A stretch of 64,000 bases of DNA from Propioniferax innocua (GTDB lineage: Bacteria > Actinomycetota > Actinomycetes > Propionibacteriales > Propionibacteriaceae), in assembly GCF_006716235.1 (NCBI RefSeq), contig NZ_VFOR01000001.1, positions 1,302,001-1,366,000 of the forward strand, given 5' to 3'. Positions 11,646-52,265 of this stretch are shown one piece after another (the stretch's first letter is position 1; every line of letters starts with the position of its first letter). The notes under the pieces are model-generated. The model worked only from the letters and a program-made list of their open reading frames with translations, searched no databases and had not been told where the DNA came from. The translations under genes were made by a program, and so were the position numbers.

Positions 11646-11652
11646 CACACTG

Positions 11653-11736
11653 TGCGCGAGAGAGGACTTGAACCTCCACGTCCCAAAGGACACTGGCACC
11701 TGAAGCCAGCGCGTCTACCGATTCCGCCACTCGCGC
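11653..11736 (-). tRNA. tRNA-Leu (anticodon CAG)
   Basis: Cloverleaf on the minus strand: acceptor stem GCGCGAG/CTCGCGC, D-arm TGGCGGAATCGGTAGACG, anticodon stem CTGGC/GCCAG with loop TTCAGGT (anticodon CAG, reading CUG), a long class II variable arm (TGTCCTTTGGGACG), and T-arm GGTTCAAGTCC. The length of 84 nt fits Leu. CCA is not encoded. An intrinsic terminator follows at once. Confidence 0.95.
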
Positions 11737-23488: not shown

Positions 23489-24724
23489 ATGAGCTACGGA
23501 CAGAACCCCTACGGCGACAACCAGCAGTACGGGCAGAACCCCTACCAGAGCCAGAACCCTTACGCCCAGCAGCAGGACCAGCAAGGCGGACAGAACCCGT
23601 ACGCTCAGGGCGGCTTCGGGCCAGACGCCGGCCAGCAGAGCGCCAACCCCTACAGCCAGCCCAGCGCCTCACAGCCCATCGGCCAGCAGAGCGCCAACCC
23701 CTACAGCCAGCCCAGCGCCTCACAGCCCTTCGGCCAGCAGAGCGGCCAGGATGCCTTCGGCCAGCAGGGCGGCCAGGATGCCTTCGGCCAGCAGGGCGGC
23801 CAGGATGCCTTCGGCCAGCAGGGCGGCCAGGATCAGTTCGCACAGCAGCAGAACCCCTACGCCCAGCAGCAGGACCAGTTCGGTCAACAGCCCCAGCAGG
23901 ATGCCTTCGGCCAGCAGGGCGGCCAGGACCAGTTCGCACAGCAGCAGAACCCCTACGCCCAGCAGGGCGGCCAGGATCAGTTCGCACAGCAGCAGAACCC
24001 CTACGCCCAGCAGCAGAATCCGTATGGTGAACAGCAGTACGGCCAGCAGGCCTCCGCTGCGGCTCCCGATATGAGCTGGCAGGAGATCCCCGATCACGGC
24101 ATCAAGGTCTTCACCCTGGAGTCGATTCCCGGGGAGTCGGACATCACAGCCCTCGGCGAGGTCGTCGGTGTGGCGCAGCGTCCGCGTCACCGCAACGAGG
24201 AGACCCTGACCCGTGCTCATCAGGAGGCTGTTCAGGAGGCCGTCATCATGGCCAAGAACAGCAACGCCGACGCCATCATCGGTCTGCGCTACACCGAGGG
24301 CCCCGAGTCGGTCGTCGCCTACGGCACGGCTGTGACCCTCGGCTCATCGGCGTCATCCGATGAGGCCCCGGCCGACGTGAGCGTCGGGACCCCGGCCGCC
24401 GAGGCGGAGACCGCCAGCACCGAGCAGGGCGATTCATTCGCCTTCAGCAACGACCGCTCGCCGTTCGAGCAGCCGTCGCAGGAGACCGACTCGTTCGGGA
24501 CCTCCCAGCAGGACGAGAACTCGTTCCAGTCCGGCTCCGCAGCGTCCGATCAGTTCGGTGCCGATTCATCGCAGAGCAGCGACGGTGGTTTCGGGGACCA
24601 GTCCTACGGCGATCAGTCGTACGGCTCACAGTCCTACGGTGACCCGAGCCAGCAGCAGGGTCAGGAAGCGTACGACAACCCGTACGAGCAGCAGAGCGGC
24701 GAGTGGCCGTTCCGCGGCAACTGA
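23489..24724 (+). CDS. Gln/Gly/Asn-rich repeat protein with YbjQ (UPF0145) domain
   Basis: A 411-residue protein of unknown function. Residues 1-~190 are extreme low complexity built from QNPYAQQ and FGQQGGQDA units, rich in Q, G, N, Y and lacking charge. Residues ~200-295 are a YbjQ/UPF0145 domain (IPGESDITALGEVVGVAQRPRHRN; EAVIMAKNSNADAIIGLRY), a pentamer-forming fold sometimes called heavy-metal binding. The tail (~300-411) is again Q/S/G/Y-rich. No signal or membrane segment is seen. It resembles a condensate-forming protein around an oligomeric core; that is inference. Confidence 0.85.
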   Translation: MSYGQNPYGDNQQYGQNPYQSQNPYAQQQDQQGGQNPYAQGGFGPDAGQQSANPYSQPSASQPIGQQSANPYSQPSASQPFGQQSGQDAFGQQGGQDAFGQQGGQDAFGQQGGQDQFAQQQNPYAQQQDQFGQQPQQDAFGQQGGQDQFAQQQNPYAQQGGQDQFAQQQNPYAQQQNPYGEQQYGQQASAAAPDMSWQEIPDHGIKVFTLESIPGESDITALGEVVGVAQRPRHRNEETLTRAHQEAVQEAVIMAKNSNADAIIGLRYTEGPESVVAYGTAVTLGSSASSDEAPADVSVGTPAAEAETASTEQGDSFAFSNDRSPFEQPSQETDSFGTSQQDENSFQSGSAASDQFGADSSQSSDGGFGDQSYGDQSYGSQSYGDPSQQQGQEAYDNPYEQQSGEWPFRGN

Positions 24725-32958: not shown

Positions 32959-34713
32959 ATGCCTGGACCGATCGACCCCCGGTTGTGGAGCCGCGCATCG
33001 GCGACGAAGACGTACATGGTGGCCGGCGTCGCGGTCGGGACAGTCACCTCGGTCGTTCTGGTGGCTCAGGCGTGGCTGCTGGCCAAGCTCATCTCGACCG
33101 CATTCCACCTTCAGGGGCTCCCCGGTGATCTGAACGCCGTTCTTCCGGGTTCGGAGAACGCGGCCTATCCACTCGGCGGCCTTGCACCGTCACTCGGTGC
33201 GCTCGGCGGCATCATCGCAATACGTGCCGTGCTCATGTGGTTCAACTCGTGGCTCGCCCATCGTTCGGCCGCACGTGTGAAGTCACAGTTGCGCACCGAC
33301 ATCATCGCCGCGCGGCTCGCGTCCCCGCACGATGCGACCCTGACCACCGGCCAGCTCGTGCAGGTGGTCACCAAGGGACTGGACAACCTCGATGGTTATT
33401 TCGGCCGGTACCTGCCCCAGCTCGCCCTGGCCATCACCGTGCCCGCAGTCGTGGGGACCGCCATCCTGGTCACCGACTGGGAGTCGACACTGGTGGTGAT
33501 CCTGACGCTTCCGTTGATCCCGCTGTTCATGATCCTCATCGGGCTCGCCACACAAGCCAAGATGGATCGTTCGTGGCGCACCCAGTCGCGGCTCGGCAAT
33601 CACTTCAACGATCTCGTGGTGGGACTTCCCACGCTGCAGGCGTTCGGACGGGCCGCCGCGCAGCGCAAGGGACTCAAGATCAACGAAGGAAACCACCGGG
33701 CGCAGACGATGTCGACGCTGCGGGTCAGCTTCCTCAGCGGCGGCGTCCTCGAACTCGTCGCCACCTATTCGGTGGCACTCGTCGCGGTGCCGATCGGGCT
33801 GCAGCTGGCCTTCGGCCACATGGATCTGATGACGGGCCTGTTCGTGCTGATCCTCGTTCCCGAGGTATATCTGCCGGTGCGGCAGGTGGGCGTCCACTAC
33901 CACGATTCGGTGGATGGCATCACCGCTGCCGAGGAGGCCTTCGCCGCGATCGACGCCGGATCCCACCCCGCATCACAGACGGACCCTGCCGACCCCTCAC
34001 CGGCCAATCCCTCACCGGCAGGCATCATCTTCGACGCCGTGACCGTCGGTTACAGCGAGAACACGGTTCTCGACCGTCACAGCGAGAACACGGTTCTCGA
34101 CCGTCACAGCGAGAACACGGTTCTCGACGAATTCTGTGAGCACATCGCCCCCGGCGAGGTCGTCGCCCTCGTGGGGCCGAGCGGCTGCGGGAAGTCCACC
34201 GCCCTGCACGTTCTCATGGGATTCCTGACCCCTGCGTCCGGGACGGTCCATGCCGGTGGAATGTCACTGGGGGACCCACGGTGGCGTCGGCAGTTCGCCT
34301 GGGTGGGCCAGACCCCCGGCATGATCAATGGGACCGTGGCCGACAACGTCCGGCTCGGGGACCCCGACGCCTCCGACGACGCTCTCCAGAACGCATTGCT
34401 GCGAGCCGGGGCCGGCGATATGGCGCTGGGGCATCACGTCGGTGATGGCGGCGAGGGCCTGTCGGCCGGTGAACGGCGGCGGGTGGCGATCGCGCGGGCG
34501 CTGTTGCGCGTCGACGCCGGGTCGGACTGGATGATTCTCGACGAACCCACCGCAGGTCTCGATGCCGACACCGAGGCTTCGGTGATCGAGACGCTGCGTG
34601 GCTCGGGCACCGGCGTCCTCGTCGTCACCCATCGCCCCGCCGTGATGGAGGCCGCCGATCGTGTCATCACGATGGAGCGTGCGGAGGACCGGATGTCGGA
34701 GGTGGCGCGATGA
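32959..34713 (+). CDS. cydD: Thiol-reductant ABC exporter subunit CydD
   Basis: Half-transporter exporting cysteine/glutathione-type reductant needed to assemble cytochrome bd. Six membrane helices in residues 1-~310, then the ATPase domain with Walker A GPSGCGKST (406-414), signature LSAGERRRVAIARAL and Walker B DWMILDEPTAG. Between the A-loop tyrosine (VTVGY, ~365) and Walker A there is a tandem in-frame repeat SENTVLDRH x2.8 (residues 366-390), adding about 18 residues where homologues have one copy. Overlaps cydC by 4 bp. Confidence 0.94.
   Translation: MPGPIDPRLWSRASATKTYMVAGVAVGTVTSVVLVAQAWLLAKLISTAFHLQGLPGDLNAVLPGSENAAYPLGGLAPSLGALGGIIAIRAVLMWFNSWLAHRSAARVKSQLRTDIIAARLASPHDATLTTGQLVQVVTKGLDNLDGYFGRYLPQLALAITVPAVVGTAILVTDWESTLVVILTLPLIPLFMILIGLATQAKMDRSWRTQSRLGNHFNDLVVGLPTLQAFGRAAAQRKGLKINEGNHRAQTMSTLRVSFLSGGVLELVATYSVALVAVPIGLQLAFGHMDLMTGLFVLILVPEVYLPVRQVGVHYHDSVDGITAAEEAFAAIDAGSHPASQTDPADPSPANPSPAGIIFDAVTVGYSENTVLDRHSENTVLDRHSENTVLDEFCEHIAPGEVVALVGPSGCGKSTALHVLMGFLTPASGTVHAGGMSLGDPRWRRQFAWVGQTPGMINGTVADNVRLGDPDASDDALQNALLRAGAGDMALGHHVGDGGEGLSAGERRRVAIARALLRVDAGSDWMILDEPTAGLDADTEASVIETLRGSGTGVLVVTHRPAVMEAADRVITMERAEDRMSEVAR
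34054..34128 (+). repeat. 27-bp in-frame tandem repeat in cydD
   Basis: Two full units (34054-34080, 34081-34107) and 21 bp of a third. The units are identical at the DNA level and encode SENTVLDRH. Each contains the near-palindrome GAGAACACGGTTCTC. Confidence 0.95.
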
Positions 34714-40023: not shown

Positions 40024-42675
40024 GTGACCGACAGATTCGACGAACCTCCCCCGCCGCCAGACGAAGGCGGCGGTTCACAACTCGACCGCACTCCTCCGCA
40101 GGACGTTCTGGCCGAGCAGTCGGTGCTCGGCGCGATGATGATGAGCAAGGACGCCATCGCCGACGTCGTGGAGATCGTGCGCGGCCGTGACTTCTACCTG
40201 CCCAAGCACGAGTTCGTGTACGACGCGATTCTCAGCGTCTACGGACGAGGCGACCCGGCCGACGCGATCACCGTGGCTGACGAGCTGGGCCGCACCGGGC
40301 AACTTCAGCGCGTCGGCGGCGCGCCCTACCTGCATGATCTGCTCTCGTCGGTCGCGATCGCAGCCAACGCCAGCTACTACGCCGAGATCGTCCGCGACAA
40401 AGCGATCCTGCGGCGTCTGGTGGAGGCGTCGGTGCAGATCGCACAGATGGGTTACGCCGGCGAGGGTGAGGTGAACGACATCGTCGACGCCGCCCAGGCT
40501 GCGGTGTATGGCGTCTCGGACGGCAAGGCGAACGAGGACTACGCACCACTGGCCGACCTCATGGAGGAGACCCTCGACGAGATCGAGGCCATCAGCGCCC
40601 AGGGCGGCGAGATGGTGGGCGTACCCACCGGATTCACCGATCTCGATGAACTCACCAATGGCCTGCACCCGGGACAGATGGTGATCCTCGCCGCCAGACC
40701 CGCGATGGGCAAATCAACCCTCGGGCTGGACATGGCCCGGTCGTGTTCGATCAAGAACAACATGGCGTCGGTGATCTTCTCGTTGGAGATGAGCAAGGTC
40801 GAGATCGTGATGCGTCTGGTCTCCGCCGAAGCGCAGATCCAGCTCTCGTCCCTTCGCAAGGGGTCGATGAACGAGGACGACTGGCAGCGTCTGGCCAACA
40901 AGATGGCCGACATCTCCAGCGCACCGCTGTTCATCGACGATTCGCCGAACCTGACGATGATGGAGATCCGCGCCAAGGCCCGCCGCCTGAAGCAGAAACA
41001 CGACCTGCGCCTGATCGTCATCGACTACCTGCAGCTGATGACCTCGGGCAAGAAGGTCGAGTCGCGTCAGTTGGAGGTCTCGGAGTTCTCGCGTCAGATC
41101 AAGCTGCTGGCCAAGGAGCTCGGGGTGCCCGTGGTGGCTATGTCGCAGCTCAACCGTGGTCCCGAACAGCGCACCGACAAGAAACCGATGGTGTCCGATC
41201 TTCGCGAGTCGGGTTGCCTGACGGCATCCACGCGCATCCTCCGCGCGGACACGGGCGCGGAAACCACCATCGGAGAGATCTATAGTCAAGGCCTCCGCGA
41301 CATTCCGGTCTGGTCGGTCGACGAGAACCATCGCGTGGTTCCCATGACGATGACACATGCGTTCTCCAGCGGCGTCAAGGACGTCTTCCGTATGCGCCTC
41401 GCCTCGGGCCGAGAGATCGAGGCGACCGCCAATCACAAGTTCCTCACCATCGACGGCTGGGTTCCGCTCGAAGATCTCGCTCCGGGACACCGGCTGGCAG
41501 TGCCCCGGCACGTGCCGGACCCGATCGCCACGAAGAGGGCCGACGATGACGAGGTGGCGCTACTCGCTCACATGATCGGCGATGGGTCATTCGTCAAGAA
41601 GCAGCCCATCCGTTACGCCAGTGTCGACGAAGCAAACCTGACACGTGTTGCCGAGGCCGCGTCGCGTCGTTTCGGCATCAACGCCAAGCGGGACGAACAT
41701 TCGGCTGCGCGGGTGACCACGCTTCGGCTGCCCGCGCCCTTCCGCCTCACGCACGGTAAGCGCAACCCCATTGCGGCTTGGCTCGATGGATTGGGGCTCT
41801 TCGGGTTGCGTAGCCACGAGAAGTTCATCCCCGAGTGGGTCTTTGCACTACCCCTTGATCAAGTGCAGGACTTCATCGGCCACCTGTGGGCAACGGACGG
41901 TTCGGCCCGTTGGGACGAACAAGCCCGACAAGCGCGGATTTACTACGCCACCTCAAGTCGGCGACTCGCCGACGGTCTGTGCCAGCTCCTGCTGCGCTGT
42001 GGCATCGTCGCCAGAATCAAGATCGCACAGAAGAGCGGCTTCCGAGATGGCTATCACGTGCACATCTATGGGGCGGCGCAGCAACTCACCTTCTGCCGCA
42101 CCATCCCTGTGTGGGGCGCTCGGGGCGTTTCTGCACGGCAGATGGTTCCACGGCTGGAAGCGATCAAGGGAAACACCAACGTGGACACCGTCCCTCGCGA
42201 AGTCTGGGCCTCTGTCAGGACCTCACTGACTGCGCAAGGCATGAGCCACCGAGCCTTCTCGGAGGCCTTGGGAACAGCCTTCTGCGGATCGGCGTTGTGG
42301 AAGCGCTCACCGAGCCGAGAGCGCTTGGGTCGTGTGGCGACCTTGCTGGAAGACCCCGATCTGCAAAAGCTGGCCGACAGCGACCTGCTGTGGGACTCGG
42401 TCGTTTCCATCGAGCCCCTGGGACAGCAGGAAGTGTTCGACGCAACGGTTCCGGGGACGCATTGCTTCGTGGCCAACGGCGTCGTGGCCCACAACAGCTT
42501 GGAACAGGACGCCGACATCGTGATCCTGCTGCACCGTGACGACGTGTACGACAAGGAATCGCCCCGCGCCGGCGAAGCCGACTTCATCATCGCCAAGAAC
42601 CGCAACGGCCCGACGCGCACGGTGACCACGATCTTCCAGGGCCACTACTCACGGTTCGTGGATATGCAGCACTGA
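40024..42675 (+). CDS. dnaB: Replicative DNA helicase DnaB containing an intein
   Basis: Hexameric fork helicase. The 883-codon frame encodes a 456-residue DnaB interrupted by a 427-residue intein. Extein: N-terminal domain (PQDVLAEQSVLGAMMMSKDAIADV), Walker A ARPAMGKSTL (K230), VIFSLEMSK, VIDYLQLM and VSDLRESG, resuming after the intein as SLEQDADIVILLHRDD. Start GTG with GGGAGG upstream. No ssb or rplI is adjacent on this side. Function depends on protein splicing. Confidence 0.96.
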   Translation: MTDRFDEPPPPPDEGGGSQLDRTPPQDVLAEQSVLGAMMMSKDAIADVVEIVRGRDFYLPKHEFVYDAILSVYGRGDPADAITVADELGRTGQLQRVGGAPYLHDLLSSVAIAANASYYAEIVRDKAILRRLVEASVQIAQMGYAGEGEVNDIVDAAQAAVYGVSDGKANEDYAPLADLMEETLDEIEAISAQGGEMVGVPTGFTDLDELTNGLHPGQMVILAARPAMGKSTLGLDMARSCSIKNNMASVIFSLEMSKVEIVMRLVSAEAQIQLSSLRKGSMNEDDWQRLANKMADISSAPLFIDDSPNLTMMEIRAKARRLKQKHDLRLIVIDYLQLMTSGKKVESRQLEVSEFSRQIKLLAKELGVPVVAMSQLNRGPEQRTDKKPMVSDLRESGCLTASTRILRADTGAETTIGEIYSQGLRDIPVWSVDENHRVVPMTMTHAFSSGVKDVFRMRLASGREIEATANHKFLTIDGWVPLEDLAPGHRLAVPRHVPDPIATKRADDDEVALLAHMIGDGSFVKKQPIRYASVDEANLTRVAEAASRRFGINAKRDEHSAARVTTLRLPAPFRLTHGKRNPIAAWLDGLGLFGLRSHEKFIPEWVFALPLDQVQDFIGHLWATDGSARWDEQARQARIYYATSSRRLADGLCQLLLRCGIVARIKIAQKSGFRDGYHVHIYGAAQQLTFCRTIPVWGARGVSARQMVPRLEAIKGNTNVDTVPREVWASVRTSLTAQGMSHRAFSEALGTAFCGSALWKRSPSRERLGRVATLLEDPDLQKLADSDLLWDSVVSIEPLGQQEVFDATVPGTHCFVANGVVAHNSLEQDADIVILLHRDDVYDKESPRAGEADFIIAKNRNGPTRTVTTIFQGHYSRFVDMQH
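41215..42495 (+). other. DnaB intein with LAGLIDADG homing endonuclease
   Basis: Residues 398-824 of the dnaB product. N-terminal splice junction Cys1 (CLTASTRILRADTG), block B near TANHKFLTIDG, LAGLIDADG motifs LLAHMIGDGSF and FIGHLWATDGSA, C-terminal block THCFVANGVVAHN followed by Ser+1. It is inserted in the helicase's ESG/SLEQDAD motif, a conserved site in the nucleotide-binding core. All splice residues look intact and the endonuclease seems full length, so it may still be mobile. Confidence 0.95.
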
Positions 42676-42744: not shown

Positions 42745-43523
42745 ATGCGGTGGTCACTGGACGACTTGACTCGTGCGCTGGAGGCCATGCGCATCCGCCG
42801 AGGGACACCACCACGACCATTGAGGTGAAGCGCGCCTCCGGAGGCGTTCCGTCCATGCCGGAGACCTTGTGCGCGTTCGCCAACATGCCCGACGGCGGGA
42901 CCATCATCTTGGGGGTCGACGAGGGAAATGGCCGCTTCGAGGTCACCGGACTGACAGATCTCGCAGCCATCGAGTCCGGCATCATCTCCCAAGCCCGGCA
43001 AGCGGTGACCCCGAGCCCCCAGCTTGTTCCCCAACAGTTCATCGTGAACGGGAAACAGCTACTGGTGCTCCACGTGGTCCCCTTGCCTGCAACAGACAGG
43101 CCAGCCACCGCCGACGGGGTCGCCTATCTTCGACAACCCGACGGCGACTGTCCCATGCACGAGCACGAACTCCGAATGCTGGAAGTGGCAAAGCTACATC
43201 TCGATGAGCAGGTCGAGTACGACCTTCGGGCCGCATCCGGGCTCGACATCGACGATCTGGTACCCGAACTCGTCGACCAGTACATTGCAACGGCCAGAAG
43301 CCGCGATGGTCGGCTACGCAATGACTCCCGGGAGCAGACCCTGCGCAACACCAGCGTGCTGACCCGAACCGGCGAACCCACATTGGCAGGCCTGTACGCA
43401 CTGGGCGATTATCCCCAAGGTCGCTACCCAGCCCTGACCGTGACTGCGGCCGTCCAACTTCCAGGCGGGGAAGGGCAGCACCGAAACACGGTCTACCGCC
43501 GTGCACCATGGACCACAAACTGA
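42745..43523 (+). pseudogene. AlbA_2-domain (Schlafen-like) ATP/DNA-binding protein, frameshifted and truncated
   Basis: The codons from ATG 42745 (MRWSLDDLTRALEAMRIRRG) stop in frame, while the family sequence TTTIEVKRASGGVPSMPETLCAFANMPDGGTIILGVDE continues in another frame, so one base has been lost or gained near 42800. AlbA_2 (DUF4062/COG2865-like) proteins run on for a further 150 or more residues, but here the frame ends after RYPALTVTAAVQLPGGEG. It therefore looks broken at both ends. It marks the left edge of the restriction island. A sequencing error at 42800 could mimic the first lesion. Confidence 0.7.
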
Positions 43524-43643: not shown

Positions 43644-43723
43644 ATGGCAGAGTAGCCCCAAGTCATCCGAAAGCGAGGCCCCATGTCATCGTTGGGAAAC
43701 CTGATCTGGAACATCGCCGACCA
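43644..43723 (+). repeat. Left direct repeat flanking the restriction island (5' end of hsdM)
   Basis: The segment from ATGGCAGAG to GCCGACCA covers ~40 bp upstream of hsdM and its first 13 codons. It recurs with ~85% identity at 52157-52235. Confidence 0.85.
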
Positions 43724-45629
43724 GCTGCGCGGGGTCTACAAGCCCGCGCAGTACGGTACGGCCACGCTGCCGTTCCTGATCCTGCGACGAATGGAGTGCG
43801 TCCTCGCCGACCACCGCGACGAGATCAACGCGATGGCCGCGAGCACACCAAACGACATGGTCCTCGCCGCGAAGCTCCGCAAGCAGTTCAACCTGCACTT
43901 CTGGAACCGCACGAACTACACGCTGAAGTCGCTGCTAGGCGATCCGGAGAATCTGGCCGAGAACCTCATCGATTACACCGCAGGTTTCTCCGCCAACGTC
44001 GCCGACATCTTCGACCGCTTCGGGTTCACCGAGACGGTCCACAAACTCGACGAGAAGGACCGGCTGTACCTGGTGGTCGGGCAGTTCACCGACATCGACC
44101 TGCATCCCAAGCGGGTCACCAACGCCGACATGGGGCAGGTGTTCGAGCATCTGATCTTCAAGTTCTCCACCGCAAGCAACGAGACCGCCGGTGAGCACTT
44201 CACCCCACGCGATGCAATCCGCCTGATCGTTGATCTCGTGCTGGCTCCCGATGACGAGATCCTCTCCGAAGCTGGCGTCGTGCGTTCGATCTACGATCCG
44301 ACCGCCGGTACTGGCGGCATGTTGTCGGTGGCGGAGGAGGAGATCCTCGCCATGAACCCGAGAGCCCAGGTCACCTTGGCCGGGCAGGAGCTCAACGACG
44401 AGTCCTATGCGATCTGCAAGTCCGACATGATCGCCAAGGGCCACGCGGTGGACGCCATCCGCCTCGGCGACACGCTCTACGACGACAAGCACTACGACCA
44501 GACCTTCGACTACTGCCTGTCGAATCCGCCCTACGGCGGCGACTGGAAGGCGTCGCAAGCCGTGGTGCGCCGTGAGCACGAGATCGGCGGGGGCCGGTTC
44601 GACGCCGGGCTGCCGCGCATCAGCGATGGCCAGACGCTGTTCCTGCAGCACCTGATCTCCAAGCTGCGTCCGGCCAAGGCTGGGGCGAAGGACTCCGGGG
44701 GCCGGGCGGGCATCGTCCTCAACGGGTCGCCGCTGTTCACCGGTGGCGCGGGTTCGGGTGAGTCGGAGATCCGACGCTGGTTGATCGAGTCCGACCTCAT
44801 CGACTGCATCGTCGCCCTGCCGACCAACATGTTCTACAACACCGGCATCGCGACGTATGTGTGGGTCCTCGACAATCACAAGCCCGAGGAACGACGCGGC
44901 AAGATCCAGCTCATCGACGCCACCGCGCGCTGGACCAAGATGCGCAAGAACCTCGGCTCCAAGAACCGTGAGATCGGCGACGCCGACCGCGACGCCATCG
45001 CAAACCTCTACGAGGGCTTCACCGAGACCGAGCACTGCAAGATCCTCGAACCCGCCGACTTCGGCTACTGGGAGATCACCGTCGAACAACCGTTGCGCCT
45101 GCGGTTCGCGCCCGATGCCGAATTGGTGGACGCCGCCTTGGCCGCGAAGGCGATCACCAAGCTCGATCAGGACGAACAGGGCAAGCTCCGCACTGCACTG
45201 GAATCGCTGATCGGCCAGACTTGGATGGACCGCGCCGAGTTCATCCAGGACCTCAAGAAGGCCGCCCGCGAGCGCGGAGTCGCCCCGAGCGCTGCGGTGG
45301 TGAAGGCGATCTGGCAGGCCATCGGGGTACATGACGATGACGCGGTGGTCTGCACCGACAACAAGGGCAACGTCGAACCGGACACCGATCTGCGCGACAC
45401 CGAACTCGTGCCCTTCCGCGACGACATCGAGAGCTACTTCGAACGCGAAGTGCTCCCCCACGTGCCGGACGCCTGGATCGATGAGTCGAAGACGAAGATC
45501 GGGTACGAGATCCCGTTCACGCGGTTGTTCTACAAGTACGTCCCGCCGCGCCCCCTCGAGGAGATCGACGCCGACCTCGAACGGGTGACGGCCGAGATCA
45601 TCGAACTGCTGCAGGACGTGGAGTCGTGA
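43683..45629 (+). CDS. hsdM: Type I restriction-modification system, methyltransferase subunit
   Basis: N6-adenine methyltransferase of the type I complex. 648 residues: helical N-terminal domain (SSLGNLIWNIADQLRGVYKPAQYGTATLPFLILRR), SAM-binding DPTAGTGGM (205-213) and catalytic NPPY (N281-P-P-Y284). GEHFTPRDAIRLIVDLV is the usual linker motif. A ~180-residue C-terminal extension would contact HsdS. The start codon lies in the direct repeat. The stop overlaps hsdS. Confidence 0.95.
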   Translation: MSSLGNLIWNIADQLRGVYKPAQYGTATLPFLILRRMECVLADHRDEINAMAASTPNDMVLAAKLRKQFNLHFWNRTNYTLKSLLGDPENLAENLIDYTAGFSANVADIFDRFGFTETVHKLDEKDRLYLVVGQFTDIDLHPKRVTNADMGQVFEHLIFKFSTASNETAGEHFTPRDAIRLIVDLVLAPDDEILSEAGVVRSIYDPTAGTGGMLSVAEEEILAMNPRAQVTLAGQELNDESYAICKSDMIAKGHAVDAIRLGDTLYDDKHYDQTFDYCLSNPPYGGDWKASQAVVRREHEIGGGRFDAGLPRISDGQTLFLQHLISKLRPAKAGAKDSGGRAGIVLNGSPLFTGGAGSGESEIRRWLIESDLIDCIVALPTNMFYNTGIATYVWVLDNHKPEERRGKIQLIDATARWTKMRKNLGSKNREIGDADRDAIANLYEGFTETEHCKILEPADFGYWEITVEQPLRLRFAPDAELVDAALAAKAITKLDQDEQGKLRTALESLIGQTWMDRAEFIQDLKKAARERGVAPSAAVVKAIWQAIGVHDDDAVVCTDNKGNVEPDTDLRDTELVPFRDDIESYFEREVLPHVPDAWIDESKTKIGYEIPFTRLFYKYVPPRPLEEIDADLERVTAEIIELLQDVES

Positions 45630-46912
45630 GCATCCAACAAGAAGACCTCCTCGGCGAGCGCCCACCGTCACACTGGGTCGTTACACGACTCGGACGTCTA
45701 GGCCGATGGGGCAAGGGATACGGCGGCTCCAAGAAAGACAACCAAGAATCGGGAATCCCCGTCGTTCGGTACGGCGACCTCTACACCACATTCCAGACCA
45801 CCATCGAGCATCCGGTGGCCTATGTCAGTTCCGAAGATGCCGATCGTTACGCGCCGCTTCACCCCGGAACCTTAGTTTTCACTGCGTCCGGCGAGGACCC
45901 CGAAGAGATCGGCAAGGCCGCCGTCTCCATGCTGCCTGACCCAGCCGTCGTCGGTGGCGATGCCATCACTCTGGAACCGGACGGCGACGTGGACCCCCTG
46001 TTCCTGGCCTATGGAATACAAGCGCACCCTTTGAGGACTCACCGAGCCCTTCGCTCAACAGGGTTCACGGTGGTGCATATCAGCGCCGCCAAGTTGAAGA
46101 CAATCCCTCTTGCGCTGCCGCCATTAGGAGAACAACGAGCAATCGCAGACTTCTTGAACCGCGAGACCGCAAAGATCGACGCGCTCATCGAGAAGCAGAA
46201 CGAGCTGATCTCCCTGCTCCGTGAACGGCGAGGGGCAGCAGTGCAGCATCGACTGGACGTGTTCAGTGCTGAACACTCCACGATCGCTCTGGGATACGTG
46301 ATTGGTTCCATCGATCAGGGAGCGAGTCCCTCTTGCGCAACATGGCCCGTGGCGAACCCCGCCACGGACTGGTGCGTCCTCAAGGTCGGATGTGTCAACT
46401 ATGGCGTGTTCCGGCCGGACGAGAACAAGGCACTTCTGGACCTCGAATACGCCGATCCCAAGCACGCAGTCCAGGCTGGCGATGTGGTCGTTTCCCGCGG
46501 AAATACGCGCGAACTCGTTGGGAGTGCCGCGCATGTCCCAACGCATCTCCCGCGCGCATTGCTGAGTGATCTCCTTTATCGGGTTCGCACCCGGTCTGAC
46601 CTTTACGATCCCCAGTTTCTGGCAACGGTGCTTGGAAGCCGCCATGCACGGGATCAGATCGAGCTCGAGGCTCGAGGGAGTAGCCACACAATGCCCAAGA
46701 TCTCGCAAGCGGTCCTGCGGAAGCTGCAGGTTCCCCACATACCACTTGCCGAGCAACGTGCCTTGCAGACCAGCATCGCCGCTGAGACCGCCAAGATCGA
46801 CGCCCTCATCGCCAAAGCCGAGGAGCACATCGCTCTCGCCCAAGAGCGTCGGGCGGCGCTCATCACCGCTGCGGTCACGGGCCAGCTCGACATCCCCGGA
46901 GAGACGAACTGA
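45626..46912 (+). CDS. hsdS: Type I restriction-modification system, specificity subunit
   Basis: Recognises the DNA target for the complex. 428 residues with two target-recognition domains, each followed by a long helix: KIDALIEKQNELISLLRERRGAAVQHRLD after TRD1 and KIDALIAKAEEHIALAQERRAALITAAVTGQLDI after TRD2. The GTG start overlaps hsdM by 4 bp. The TRD2 region (~46300-46700) has visibly lower GC and mixed codon use compared with hsdM, as expected for recombining specificity domains. Confidence 0.94.
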   Translation: MSIQQEDLLGERPPSHWVVTRLGRLGRWGKGYGGSKKDNQESGIPVVRYGDLYTTFQTTIEHPVAYVSSEDADRYAPLHPGTLVFTASGEDPEEIGKAAVSMLPDPAVVGGDAITLEPDGDVDPLFLAYGIQAHPLRTHRALRSTGFTVVHISAAKLKTIPLALPPLGEQRAIADFLNRETAKIDALIEKQNELISLLRERRGAAVQHRLDVFSAEHSTIALGYVIGSIDQGASPSCATWPVANPATDWCVLKVGCVNYGVFRPDENKALLDLEYADPKHAVQAGDVVVSRGNTRELVGSAAHVPTHLPRALLSDLLYRVRTRSDLYDPQFLATVLGSRHARDQIELEARGSSHTMPKISQAVLRKLQVPHIPLAEQRALQTSIAAETAKIDALIAKAEEHIALAQERRAALITAAVTGQLDIPGETN

Positions 46913-46913
46913 C

Positions 46914-47795
46914 ATGGCACGCGCACAGACGATCCAGATCTTCCTGCCGAGTGGAAACCCGCAAGGACTTCGGCAGGCCGAGATCACGACCCGCACGGTC
47001 CAGGTGTTCGACATCCCACGCGCGTCGCTGTCGGAGTTTCTCGCCATGGAACAGGCCCACCAGGTCGGGGTGTATTTCCTGTTCAGTGACACGTCCGACA
47101 CTGACGAACGTGCCGAGTGCTACATCGGAGAGACCGACGACATCGGCAAGCGCTTGCGTCAGCACGAAAGCAAGAAGCTGTTCTGGACCCGGGCACTCGT
47201 GGCCATCTCCCTGACTGCCTCGTGGACGAAGACGCACGTGCGCTACTTCGAAGCCAAGGCGGTCCGCGTCGCGAAGGACAACGGACGCTATGCGGTGAAG
47301 AACGGCAACGACGGTTACGCCAACATGCACATGCCGCTGCCACTTCAGGCCGACTGTGATGAGTTCTTCGAAACGATTTCAGTGCTGACCGCGACCTTGG
47401 GATTTCCCATCCTGCGGCCGTTGAAGTCCAAGCAGGACACCCCGCACGCCAACATCCTCCACGTACGCGGTCTCAAGGACACCACCTCGGGCTCCTACTC
47501 CGACGAAGGGCTGACCGTCTTCGCAGGAACCCAGATCGTGCCGCAGAATGCCAAGTGGCGCCCCTATCCCGCCATCGCCGCCCAGCGGGAAGCCCTCCTG
47601 GACGATGGTGTACTCCAGCAGGACGAGTCCGGCGCCATCGTGTTCGCCAAGGACCACCTGTTCCCCACCCCCAGCGGAGCCGCCTGCGTGATCCGCGGAC
47701 GCAGTGCCAACGGTTGGGAGCAGTGGCGGGATGGTCAGAACCAACGGCTGGATGCGATCGTGGATCGCACCGGTACTCAGGAGGAGGTGCCCTGA
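46914..47795 (+). CDS. GIY-YIG nuclease-domain protein with DUF4357 tail, inside the R-M operon
   Basis: A 293-residue protein between hsdS and hsdR. Residues ~52-140 are a GIY-YIG nuclease: G52-V-Y54, Y70-I71-G72 in CYIGETDDIGKRLRQHE, then the conserved Glu in RYFEAKAVRVAK. The C-terminal ~60 residues (GSGAACVIRGRSANGWEQWRDGQNQRL pattern, ending DAI) fit DUF4357, often found with R-M systems. It starts 1 nt after the hsdS stop and overlaps hsdR by one base, so it is made in step with the complex. Its role (extra nuclease or modulator) is not known. Confidence 0.88.
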   Translation: MARAQTIQIFLPSGNPQGLRQAEITTRTVQVFDIPRASLSEFLAMEQAHQVGVYFLFSDTSDTDERAECYIGETDDIGKRLRQHESKKLFWTRALVAISLTASWTKTHVRYFEAKAVRVAKDNGRYAVKNGNDGYANMHMPLPLQADCDEFFETISVLTATLGFPILRPLKSKQDTPHANILHVRGLKDTTSGSYSDEGLTVFAGTQIVPQNAKWRPYPAIAAQREALLDDGVLQQDESGAIVFAKDHLFPTPSGAACVIRGRSANGWEQWRDGQNQRLDAIVDRTGTQEEVP

Positions 47796-50700
47796 TGACG
47801 AACCAGACGTGGGAATCGCAGTTCGAGACCGAGATCTGCGAACACCTCGCCGCACACGGGTGGCTCTACAGCCCCAATGACGACGGCTACGACCGCGAAC
47901 TCGCCCTCTACCCCGCCGACCTGTTTGCTTGGCTCGAGGAAACCCAACCCGAACAACTCGCCAAGAAGATCAAGCCCACCCAGTCTGCCGAGGCGCAGGC
48001 CACCTCGCGTCGCGCTCTGCTCGAGCGTCTGGCGTTACTCCTCGACAAGGGCCAGGCTGGCACCGGCGGTTCCCTGCACCTGCTGCGCACCGGGTTCAAG
48101 GACACCCCCGCGTCGTTCCAACTCATGCAGAAGCAGCCCGAACAGGGCGTCAACCCCACCGTCAACGCCCGCTACAGCGCCAACCGGCTGCGGATCATGC
48201 GTCAGGTGCACTACTCCACCAAGCACAACAAGTCGATCGACCTGGTCGCGTTCGTCAACGGTGTCCCGGTCGCGACGTTCGAACTCAAGACCGATCACAA
48301 GCAGACCATCGGCGACGCGAAACGGCAGTACTGCCACGACCGCGACCCGGCCGGTGAACCGCTGCTCGGGTTCGGCACCCGTGCACTGGTGCACTTCGCC
48401 GTGAGCAACGACGAGGTCTGGATGACCACCAAGCTCGCCGGCTCCAAGACCCACTTTCTCCCGTTCAACCGCGGCCACGAGGGCCACGAGGGCAATGGCC
48501 CCGACGAGGACGGCGGCTCGGCCACCACCTACCTGTGGCGCGACGTGCTGCAACGCGACCAGTGGCTGGACATCCTCGGCAAGTTCATCCATTACGAGGA
48601 GAAGCGCAGCACCGACGACAAGGGCCGCGTCCGCACCTCGCACACCCTGATCTTCCCGCGGTTCCACCAGCTCGATGCAGTCACCAAGATCGTCCGCGAC
48701 GCCCGCACCCACGGGGCCGGACAGCGCTACCTGATCCAGCATTCGGCCGGGTCTGGCAAGACACGCTCCATCGCGTGGTCGGCCCATCGACTCGCGACGC
48801 TGCACGACGACAACGACCAGAAGGTGTTCGACACCGTCATCGTCGTCACCGACCGCAACGTGCTCGACGAACAACTCCGCGAAGCCGTCAAACAGATCGA
48901 GAGCAAGTCGGGCGTCGTGGCCTCGATCTCCGCCAAGGAAGCCGCCAAGAAGTCGTTCGGCTCGAAGTCGGCCTATCTCTCCGAGGCACTGGCCAGCGGG
49001 AAGCTCATCATCGTGGTCACCATCCAGACCTTCCCATTCGTGTTGGAGGCCATCCAGGACGACGACGCCCTGGCCGGCCGCCGGTTCGCCGTGATCGCCG
49101 ACGAGGCGCACTCGTCACAGACCGGCCAGACCGCCGCGAAGCTCAAGGCAGTGCTCTCGGAGCAGGAGGCAGCCGAGTTGGACGACGGCGGCAGCGTCGA
49201 TGTGGAAGCGATGCTGGCAGCCGAGGCGAAGTCGCGGGCCGCCACGCCCAACATCTCGTTCCTAGCGTTCACCGCCACGCCGAAGTCGAAGACGATGGAG
49301 ATGTTCGGCACTCCCGGCCCCGACGGCAAACCCGTGCCGTTCCACACGTACACGATGGCCCAGGCGATCGAGGAAGGATTCATCCTCGACGTACTGCAGA
49401 ACTACACCACATACAAGACCGCCTACCAGTTGGCCCAGGCGTCGCAGGGTGGAGAGTTGGTGGACGAATCCACCGCCACCAAGGGCCTGATGCGATGGGT
49501 GAAGCTGCACCCGACGAACATCGCGCAAAAGGTCTCGTTAATCATCGAGCACTTCGACTCGAACGTGAAGCACCTGCTCGACGGACGAGCGAAGGCGATG
49601 GTGATCACCGACTCACGCAAGGCCGCCGTCCGCTACAAGCTCGCCATGGACGCGTACATCGCCAAGCGCGGATACACCGGCTACACCTCATTGGTCGCAT
49701 TCTCCGGCGACGTCACCGACCTCGAATCCGGACCCGATCCGTTCACCGAGCACTCCCTCAACCCCGGCGTGAAGGACCTGCGCACGGGTTTCGAGGCAGA
49801 CGAGTACCGCGTGATGATCGTCGCCAACAAGTTCCAGACCGGCTTCGACCAACCGCTGCTGTGCGCCATGTACGTCGACAAGCAGTTGGCCGGCGTCGCT
49901 GCGGTGCAGACGCTCTCCCGGCTCAACCGGGCCATGAAGGGCAAGGAGACGATGGTCGTCGACTTCGTCAATGACGAAGAGCAGATTCTGGCCGCGTTCC
50001 TGCCGTACTACGCCGAAGCCGAGATCGTCGCCACCACCGATCCCAATCTGCTCCACGACCTGCAGAGCAAACTCGACACCTCCGGGTATTACACCCCCGA
50101 CGAGGTGGACGCGGTGGTCGATGCCGCGGTCCAGAAGAAGGGCAACGGAGCGATCTCCCACGCGCTCGGGCCGATCAAGCAGCGGTTCGTCGCCGCGTGG
50201 AACAGCGCACAGGCGAGCAAGGACACCAGCGCCATCGACGAGCTGGAACTGTTCCGCAAGGACGTTCGCACGTTCGTGAAGCTCCACGATTTCGTCTCCC
50301 AGATCCTCGATTTCGAAGACGTCGACGTCGAGAGGCACGCCATCTTCTTCCGCCTGCTGATCCCGCACCTGCGGACGCATTCGGTCACCGAGACCGTCGA
50401 CCTCTCCGACGTCGAGCTGGTGCACATCAAGCAGAAGGAGACCGGCCAGCACACCCTCGACCTCTCCGAAGGCAAACCCGAGCCGCTCAAACCATCGGTG
50501 GCGGCGGGCTCCAAGCGTCGGCGTGACCCCAAGTTGGTTCTCATGGATGAACTCATCGACCGGCTCAACGCGCAGTTCGCCGGCGAGGACTTCCGCCCCG
50601 ACCAGGTCACTTCGTGGGCCACCGCGCTGGTGCAGGCAATGGAAGCCGACGAAGACCTCCAGCAGCAGGCCTCGGCCAACAGTGAAGAGCAGTTCCTGAC

Positions 50701-50980
50701 CTCGCAGAAGCTGAAGGACTCCCTCCTGATCGCGGTCTATGACACCAACCAGGCCCATTCCCGGATGACCGAGCTGTTCAACGAGGGCGGCCCGGTGGAA
50801 AGCGCGATGCTGGAGCTGCTCGGCAAGCTCGTGTACCGCGGGTTGCGCGGTGGGGACGCACAACAGGCCGTTGATGGTTCTGCCTTCGAGGTGGAGGACG
50901 CCGCCAGCCATGGAGACCGCGACACACCCAATTCTCGACAAGGGAAAGACTCTGCTGCCCTCAGCGAGCGGAACTCCTGA
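47795..50980 (+). CDS. hsdR: Type I restriction-modification system, endonuclease/translocase subunit
   Basis: Motor and nuclease that cuts unmodified DNA after translocation. 1,061 residues: N-terminal PD-(D/E)xK domain with E163-L-K165 (FELKTDHKQT), SF2 ATPase with Walker A AGSGKT (K322) and DEAH box (D436), SAT-like FTATPK motif, NKFQTGFDQPLL and QTLSRLNRA motif VI, then a helical C-terminus. GAGGAGGTG ribosome site; TGATG overlap with the GIY-YIG gene. Length is normal for HsdR. Confidence 0.95.
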   Translation: MTNQTWESQFETEICEHLAAHGWLYSPNDDGYDRELALYPADLFAWLEETQPEQLAKKIKPTQSAEAQATSRRALLERLALLLDKGQAGTGGSLHLLRTGFKDTPASFQLMQKQPEQGVNPTVNARYSANRLRIMRQVHYSTKHNKSIDLVAFVNGVPVATFELKTDHKQTIGDAKRQYCHDRDPAGEPLLGFGTRALVHFAVSNDEVWMTTKLAGSKTHFLPFNRGHEGHEGNGPDEDGGSATTYLWRDVLQRDQWLDILGKFIHYEEKRSTDDKGRVRTSHTLIFPRFHQLDAVTKIVRDARTHGAGQRYLIQHSAGSGKTRSIAWSAHRLATLHDDNDQKVFDTVIVVTDRNVLDEQLREAVKQIESKSGVVASISAKEAAKKSFGSKSAYLSEALASGKLIIVVTIQTFPFVLEAIQDDDALAGRRFAVIADEAHSSQTGQTAAKLKAVLSEQEAAELDDGGSVDVEAMLAAEAKSRAATPNISFLAFTATPKSKTMEMFGTPGPDGKPVPFHTYTMAQAIEEGFILDVLQNYTTYKTAYQLAQASQGGELVDESTATKGLMRWVKLHPTNIAQKVSLIIEHFDSNVKHLLDGRAKAMVITDSRKAAVRYKLAMDAYIAKRGYTGYTSLVAFSGDVTDLESGPDPFTEHSLNPGVKDLRTGFEADEYRVMIVANKFQTGFDQPLLCAMYVDKQLAGVAAVQTLSRLNRAMKGKETMVVDFVNDEEQILAAFLPYYAEAEIVATTDPNLLHDLQSKLDTSGYYTPDEVDAVVDAAVQKKGNGAISHALGPIKQRFVAAWNSAQASKDTSAIDELELFRKDVRTFVKLHDFVSQILDFEDVDVERHAIFFRLLIPHLRTHSVTETVDLSDVELVHIKQKETGQHTLDLSEGKPEPLKPSVAAGSKRRRDPKLVLMDELIDRLNAQFAGEDFRPDQVTSWATALVQAMEADEDLQQQASANSEEQFLTSQKLKDSLLIAVYDTNQAHSRMTELFNEGGPVESAMLELLGKLVYRGLRGGDAQQAVDGSAFEVEDAASHGDRDTPNSRQGKDSAALSERNS

Positions 50981-51182
50981 TCGCGCATCATCGGCCCTTC
51001 TGGACCACAGTCACAAGTAACTCCAGTTACCAAGATGGGGGAGATTACCTGCCCCCGACCACACAGCTGCTTCCACGGGAAGAGCGAAGAGATCGTGCAC
51101 GAGGAGAGTGCCCATGGAAGAGCCAAGCCCCGACACCACCCAATGGATTCGCGTCGCTCACTGACCCCCGACTAGAATTGAC

Positions 51183-51281
51183 ACCAGCGGTTCTTCAGGA
51201 GCCTGCCAAGGTTCACCAGCGGTGCTGCCACCGCCCTCCTTAAGTGGATCGGCCCTTGGAGGCTCCTGAAGAACCGCTGGT
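51183..51281. repeat. 28-29 bp inverted repeat at the right end of the R-M operon
   Basis: Arms 51183-51211 (ACCAGCGGTTCTTCAGGAGC...) and 51254-51281 are complementary except for one extra base, with a 42-nt loop. The right arm lies inside the last codons of the DUF3800 gene. It could be a terminator for hsdR and its convergent neighbour or the remnant of a mobile element end. Confidence 0.8.
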
Positions 51282-52049
51282 TTCCTTCCTCGGGCAACCG
51301 GGGCATGGAAACCACGGTTCATTCGTGACAGTCACATTGGTGGGACTCGACATGATCCCGAGCGGGACAGCGCAAGAGTCACTGTTCCGAATCTGATGCC
51401 AGACGCTGAGTAAGTACGCTGGCTCAGTGAGGTTGAATTGCCCATCTGGCCAGATCGCCGCCTTGAGAAATCCGCCGTAAAGATCTGCTGCCTGACTCTC
51501 CAGATACCGGTCGGCAGAGACCCAGCGCAAGCCCTTCTCGAGATGGTGCGGAACCTTCGGATCAGGGATGACCTGACGCAGAATGTATCCCTTGGTTGCC
51601 TCATGGTCGTGACGACGCACGTGCCCGAATCGCGTCCATAGCTGGGCGCCTTCGCCAGCCCAGTTGCGCCCAGCCCACAAGATCGACTTGTACATCTTGA
51701 GCGCAATGAAGTTGTAGAAGAGCGCTTGGTCGCCGTTGAACGCGTCGCGCTTGAGGTCCGCCTTCCTGCAGTAGACGTACATGACTCGCAGATTGGTCAA
51801 AGCACCGAGTCGCGCCGCCGCAAGCCGTCGGTGATCATGAGTCTTGACGTGCCTTTTCCATGACATCACCGTTCCCTCTGGAACCGAAAACAGCTCGCGT
51901 ATGTCACGAACGACTTGTCGCAACTCTGCCGCGCCGTCGTCGTCCACCATGACTGCCGCCATGCCGAACACTGGGCTCGCTTTGGACGACAGCCCACGGT
52001 CACCCGTCTCGTCAACATAAGCGAAGATGCGTGGCTGTTTCGTGGCCAT
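51240..52049 (-). CDS. DUF3800 domain protein
   Basis: A 269-residue protein. IFAYVDETGDRGLSSKASPVFGMAAVMV is the DUF3800 signature, an RNase H-like fold whose first acidic residues (D-E) may be catalytic; such genes are common beside defence systems and mobile elements. The ATG at 52049 is chosen because the 13 upstream codons lack family similarity. The last ~30 codons run through an inverted-repeat arm and look unrelated to the domain (PGCPRKETSGSSGAS), so the C-terminus may have been altered. Convergent with hsdR. Confidence 0.85.
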   Translation of the reverse strand: MATKQPRIFAYVDETGDRGLSSKASPVFGMAAVMVDDDGAAELRQVVRDIRELFSVPEGTVMSWKRHVKTHDHRRLAAARLGALTNLRVMYVYCRKADLKRDAFNGDQALFYNFIALKMYKSILWAGRNWAGEGAQLWTRFGHVRRHDHEATKGYILRQVIPDPKVPHHLEKGLRWVSADRYLESQAADLYGGFLKAAIWPDGQFNLTEPAYLLSVWHQIRNSDSCAVPLGIMSSPTNVTVTNEPWFPCPGCPRKETSGSSGASKGRST

Positions 52050-52156
52050 GCCCTGACGGTAGCGACTCGAACGGACACATGACCGCACCGCGACAATGCT
52101 CCACGCTTGTCAGCCCAAGCAAGTTCAGCCCGAGGCTGCCCTGATACGAGCAGCGA

Positions 52157-52265
52157 ATGGCAGAGCGGCCCCATCCGGCGAAAGCGAGGTCCCATGTCAT
52201 CGTTGGGAAACCTGATCTGAACCATTGCCGACCACCACGACGAGATCAACGCGATTTCCGCGAAC
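52157..52265 (+). pseudogene. hsdM 5' remnant (right direct repeat of the island)
   Basis: Repeats ~37 bp of hsdM leader and codons 1-13, but TGG at codon 9 is TGA. At GCCGACCA the copy jumps ~85 bp ahead in hsdM to CACGACGAGATCAACGCGAT (43811-43834 equivalent), a deletion between two GACCA repeats. No frame remains. Together with 43644-43723 it brackets the R-M island. Confidence 0.85.

What the first reader, a model, noticed from the sequence alone, without database searches (positions are those of the whole stretch)
43644..52265. Type I R-M island bracketed by duplicated hsdM 5' ends
The 8.5-kb block hsdM-hsdS-GIY-YIG-hsdR-DUF3800 begins and ends with the same ~80-bp segment (43644-43723; 52157-52235). 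The right copy has a stop at codon 9 and an 85-bp deletion between GACCA repeats. Thus an older hsdM stood at the right end, or the island was gained by recombination between repeats. Recombination of the two copies would delete the whole system, a built-in excision or loss route.
Basis: partly seen in the sequence, partly recalled or inferred. Interest (0 to 1): 0.72.

Follow-up and report, generated by a model that had tools for sequence, protein, structure and literature searches.

The report
Restriction island with decayed gene-start relic
A normal-looking bacterial restriction-modification gene cluster sits next to a short, broken leftover of the start of its own methylase gene; this is an ordinary trace of past gene duplication and loss, and nothing shows that it serves as an excision switch.

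Summary
The repeat is real. Window 43644-43842 and 52157-52263 share 86% identity over 80 bp and 92% over 37 bp (E 7e-20, 3e-8), the only two copies in this 2.79-Mb genome (Propionibacteriaceae-type kin). The right copy is a dead hsdM start: stop at codon 9 and a 90-bp in-frame deletion between GCCGACCA 8-mers (not 85 bp). Where relatives allow polarisation, the changes lie on the right copy.

The left copy starts an intact-looking type I operon, hsdM-hsdS-(GIY-YIG/DUF4357)-hsdR. Among 80 related hsdM loci, only one (Acinetobacter, two long tandem hsdM genes) has a second hsdM start. The gene left of hsdM is a truncated AlbA_2/Schlafen gene.

Best reading: a second hsdM copy once stood at the right, and only its start remains in a decaying accessory zone beside dnaB. 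The excision route is possible in principle (29-bp longest identity, 8.5 kb apart) but has no support. Low interest; new member of a known kind.

The parts
42801..43487 (+). Truncated AlbA_2/Schlafen-type gene; C-terminal half missing
   Evidence: 63% identical to residues 22-250 of a 508-aa homologue, remainder absent from the window; Pfam SLFN_AlbA_2
43644..43842 (+). Left copy of the repeat: hsdM leader plus first 53 codons
43683..45629 (+). hsdM, type I DNA methyltransferase subunit
   Evidence: HsdM_N, N6_Mtase, NPPY motif
45626..46912 (+). hsdS, specificity subunit
   Evidence: Methylase_S; PADLOC Specificity_I
46914..47795 (+). GIY-YIG/DUF4357 accessory gene (PADLOC PDC-S14)
   Evidence: DUF4357 1e-18, GIY-YIG just under cut-off, PDC-S14 4e-93
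47795..50980 (+). hsdR, restriction subunit
   Evidence: HSDR_N, SWI2_SNF2, T1R_D3-like
51187..51277 (+). DUF3800-IV RNA (RF02963); strand as given by the model, the long hairpin is nearly symmetrical
   Evidence: 94.3 bits against gathering 60.7; fold z-score -8.3
51240..52049 (-). DUF3800 gene (start taken at the in-frame ATG; longer GTG start at 52088)
   Evidence: Pfam DUF3800; 46% identical homologue in L124
52157..52263 (+). Right copy: hsdM 5'-end pseudogene stub, stop at codon 9 (52218-52220), 90-bp deletion

Best explanation
The right copy (52157-52263) is the decayed 5' end of a second hsdM gene, a pseudogene stub. The intact operon at 43683-50980 is an ordinary type I restriction-modification system with a known kind of GIY-YIG/DUF4357 accessory gene. 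At some time the locus held two hsdM starts in tandem, either by tandem duplication of the R-M unit or by single-crossover integration of a second unit at a resident hsdM. The body of the right-hand unit was then lost, and the stub went on decaying under no selection: a nonsense change, substitutions, and a 90-bp deletion between 8-bp repeats. The DUF3800 gene with its DUF3800-IV RNA is an independent module lying between hsdR and the stub. Shown: homology, uniqueness in the genome, the stop, the deletion, the polarity of several changes, and the separate nature of the DUF3800 module. Inferred: that a complete second hsdM existed, and how it arose and was lost.
For: Significant two-copy homology, no third copy. 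The homology includes the hsdM leader and start codon, which no relative shares: relatives align only from about codon 4-11 onward. At 52220 and 52237 all four relatives compared agree with the left copy, at 52226 three of four; 52222 and 52257 agree with the left only in the closest relative (Sinomonas), and 52256 cannot be polarised. So the right copy is the one that changed, as expected of a pseudogene. The missing 90 bp are present in the hsdM of all six relatives printed and are bounded by GCCGACCA 8-mers in the left copy, the signature of a short-repeat deletion. The next gene on the left is also truncated, so the zone is decaying in general. An Acinetobacter locus with two long tandem hsdM genes, 76% identical and in direct orientation, shows that such arrangements occur. 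DUF3800 plus DUF3800-IV RNA lies between non-R-M genes in G364.
Against: No other piece of a second R-M unit was found around the stub; 52264-52390 matches nothing in the block. A short ectopic duplication of about 200 bp that never included a whole hsdM would look the same. No genome of the same genus was available besides this one, so no empty or doubled site was seen.
Confidence: 0.75

Rival explanations
1. Short ectopic duplication: only about 200 bp of the hsdM start was copied to the right, for instance during break repair, and no second hsdM ever stood there.
For: Homology begins 39 bp before the start codon and ends at codon 53, with nothing else of the R-M unit near the stub.
Against: Right-end truncation by later deletion gives the same picture; the truncated AlbA_2 gene shows deletions happen here. 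No mechanism in the sequence favours a short copy.
Confidence: 0.17
2. Mobile or excisable unit: the two copies are the recombination ends of an R-M island that was inserted with, or can be lost by, exchange between them (first reader's excision route; compare insertion with long target duplication reported for R-M systems, PMC3031569).
For: Direct repeats bracket the block with a 29-bp identical run; R-M systems flanked by direct repeats are known.
Against: The repeat is part of the unit's own hsdM gene rather than foreign target DNA; the copies are diverged; no integrase or IS among the genes scanned and no tRNA nearby; no empty site or junction seen.
Confidence: 0.06
3. The right copy is a functional element, for example a leader peptide (MSSLGNLI) or a regulatory site shared with hsdM.
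For: Start codon and GCGAGG ribosome-site-like sequence are kept.
Against: No related hsdM locus has such an element; changes look like decay; no promoter-like site was found in the region by a simple consensus scan.
Confidence: 0.02

Closest known systems
Type I restriction-modification operon (HsdMSR) with a GIY-YIG/DUF4357 accessory gene (PADLOC PDC-S14)
   Same: Domains and overlapping or nearly overlapping starts; related systems in Propionibacterium, Tessaracoccus, Sinomonas and Dermacoccus; GIY-YIG/DUF4357 homologues also lie in type I loci L028 (after hsdR) and L100 (after hsdM)
   Different: Here the accessory gene lies between hsdS and hsdR
R-M systems inserted with long target duplication, or tandemly amplified (Kobayashi group; see PMC3031569 and references in it)
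   Same: R-M genes bracketed by direct repeats
   Different: The repeat is the R-M system's own hsdM start, one copy is a pseudogene, and no empty site is known
DUF3800-IV RNA module (Rfam RF02963)
   Same: RNA at the 3' side of a DUF3800 gene, same geometry as in G364
   Different: Here it lies between hsdR and the hsdM relic

Membership tests
Type I restriction-modification system | HsdM with N-6 methylase domain | tested here: met
   N6_Mtase 7e-57, HsdM_N 2e-21; PADLOC MTase_I 2e-264 over full length; below the NCBIfam hsdM equivalog cut-off
Type I restriction-modification system | HsdS specificity subunit with two target-recognition regions | tested here: met
   PADLOC Specificity_I 2e-72, two stretches; Pfam Methylase_S finds one stretch
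Type I restriction-modification system | HsdR with endonuclease N-domain and SF2 motor | tested here: met
   HSDR_N, SWI2_SNF2, T1R_D3-like; below the NCBIfam hsdR cut-off
Type I restriction-modification system | Methylation and restriction activity | not testable with these tools
   needs methylome or restriction assay
hsdM pseudogene relic (right copy) | Homology to hsdM with disabling lesions | tested here: met
   86%/92% identity, TGA at codon 9, 90-bp deletion
Insertion with long target duplication | Repeats are target DNA outside the inserted unit | tested here: not met
   the left copy is the working hsdM start itself
Insertion with long target duplication | Empty site with a single copy in a close relative | not testable with these tools
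   own genus holds only this genome
Integrative element or composite transposon | Integrase, transposase, IS ends or tRNA target | tested here: not met
   none among the genes scanned with Pfam; only tRNA in the window at 11652-11736
DUF3800-IV RNA (RF02963) | Covariance-model score above gathering cut-off, next to a DUF3800 gene | tested here: met
   94.3 bits against 60.7; DUF3800 gene overlaps it

The most novel reading that the evidence does not exclude
The block is a mobile R-M unit that uses its own hsdM start as recombination target: units insert, multiply and leave hsdM-start scars by homologous exchange, with the DUF3800-IV RNA module as cargo.
Probability: 0.06. Interest if true: 0.45.

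Novelty: new member of a known kind. Interest (0 to 1): 0.2.

Why it matters
It documents turnover of type I R-M systems in an actinobacterial locus: a dead second hsdM start, a truncated AlbA_2 gene and a DUF3800-RNA module packed beside dnaB. This is the expected wear of a defence locus. It would matter more only if strains showed repeated gain and loss across these repeats.

Tried and rejected
Looked for extension of homology beyond the two copies: none significant. Looked for further copies of the repeat, the right end or the AlbA_2 region in the genome: none. Looked for the missing AlbA_2 C-terminal half on the other side of the block, to show a gene split by the island: absent from the window. 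Looked for same-genus genomes: none held besides this one. Relatives in another genus of the family keep the genes before dnaB, but none of the window's genes follow dnaB there, so no clean empty site could be shown. Looked for the R-M block on plasmids: only about 71-72% matches to parts of hsdM/hsdR in Rhodococcus, and shorter pieces of hsdR in others. DUF3800 relatives were rare: one weak hit in plasmids, none in phages or viral contigs. The first idea that DUF3800 belongs to the R-M island was dropped after the Rfam match and the G364 locus. The papers that first described the DUF3800 RNAs and R-M target duplications were not held.

Full report
What is there. The window lies in contig 1 of a 2.79-Mb genome. 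Its kin appear to be Propionibacteriaceae; I infer this from the nearest named hsdM loci (Arachnia, Tessaracoccus, Propionibacterium) and did not identify the species. The block 43683-50980 is hsdM, hsdS, a GIY-YIG/DUF4357 gene and hsdR with overlapping or nearly overlapping starts. A DUF3800 gene on the other strand follows.

The repeat. 43644-43842 and 52157-52263 are homologous: 86% over 80 bp and 92% over 37 bp on the two sides of a 90-bp gap. No other copy exists in the genome. The right copy keeps the leader and eight codons, then has TGA and several substitutions, and lacks 90 bp bounded by GCCGACCA 8-mers in the left copy. Homology stops at both ends. Of six differences in the coding part, relatives side clearly with the left copy at three; the others are weaker or cannot be polarised. 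The right copy therefore looks like a pseudogene stub and the left one like the gene under constraint.

Relatives. The nearest loci carry hsdM-hsdS-hsdR. Only one of the 80, an Acinetobacter locus with two tandem hsdM genes 76% identical, has a second hsdM start; three other loci gave hits only from short repeats in their leaders. Of the 80 loci, 53 had at least 9 kb downstream, so the absence is not complete for all. None of the nearest relatives shares the leader of the window's hsdM, so the two window copies derive from one another or from a very close allele.

The DUF3800 part. 51187-51277 is the Rfam DUF3800-IV RNA at 94.3 bits, folding far better than shuffles (z -8.3). A DUF3800 gene 46-47% identical, with the same RNA in the same position, lies between genes unrelated to R-M in G364. 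[quoted passage not shown] It is rare: one other genome among 148 of the family and three others among 395 of the class at the cut-offs used. It is a separate module and gives no evidence for the extent of an R-M island.

The left flank. 42801-43487 matches residues 22-250 of a 508-aa AlbA_2 protein at 63%; the rest is absent from the window. The locus thus holds at least two broken genes.

Mechanism. The most likely history is a second hsdM start in tandem, then loss of its body and decay of the stub. Tandem multiplication and repeat-flanked insertion of R-M systems are reported (PMC3031569). A fresh excision by recombination between the present copies is possible, but would have to use a 29-bp identical run at 8.5 kb distance. 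From general knowledge of homologous recombination (not tested here) that would be rare, and no integrase or IS was found to help. Nothing in this single genome shows that it happens.

Verdict. Observation confirmed with corrections; interpretation partly supported. The system is of a known kind with a relic beside it. Interest 0.2.

Noticed in passing
51187-51277: DUF3800-IV RNA (RF02963) overlapping the 3' end of a DUF3800 gene; no function found in the papers held here. A second locus with the same arrangement is L124:10072-10926, where the outer stem differs in sequence but can still pair.
   Followed up: partly
40024-42675: dnaB carries an intein (Intein_splicing and LAGLIDADG domains) inside its helicase domain; eight relatives match only the part before it.
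   Followed up: no
42801-43487: C-terminally truncated AlbA_2/Schlafen-type gene between dnaB and hsdM.
   Followed up: partly
23629-24016: Array of 27-, 48-, 51- and 96-bp tandem repeats rich in CAGCAG/CGGCCAG.
   Followed up: no
34052-34128: Perfect 27-bp tandem repeat, 2.9 copies.
   Followed up: no
L048:6397-12304: Acinetobacter locus with two tandem hsdM genes 76% identical, the first inside a 1167-aa open frame.
   Followed up: partly
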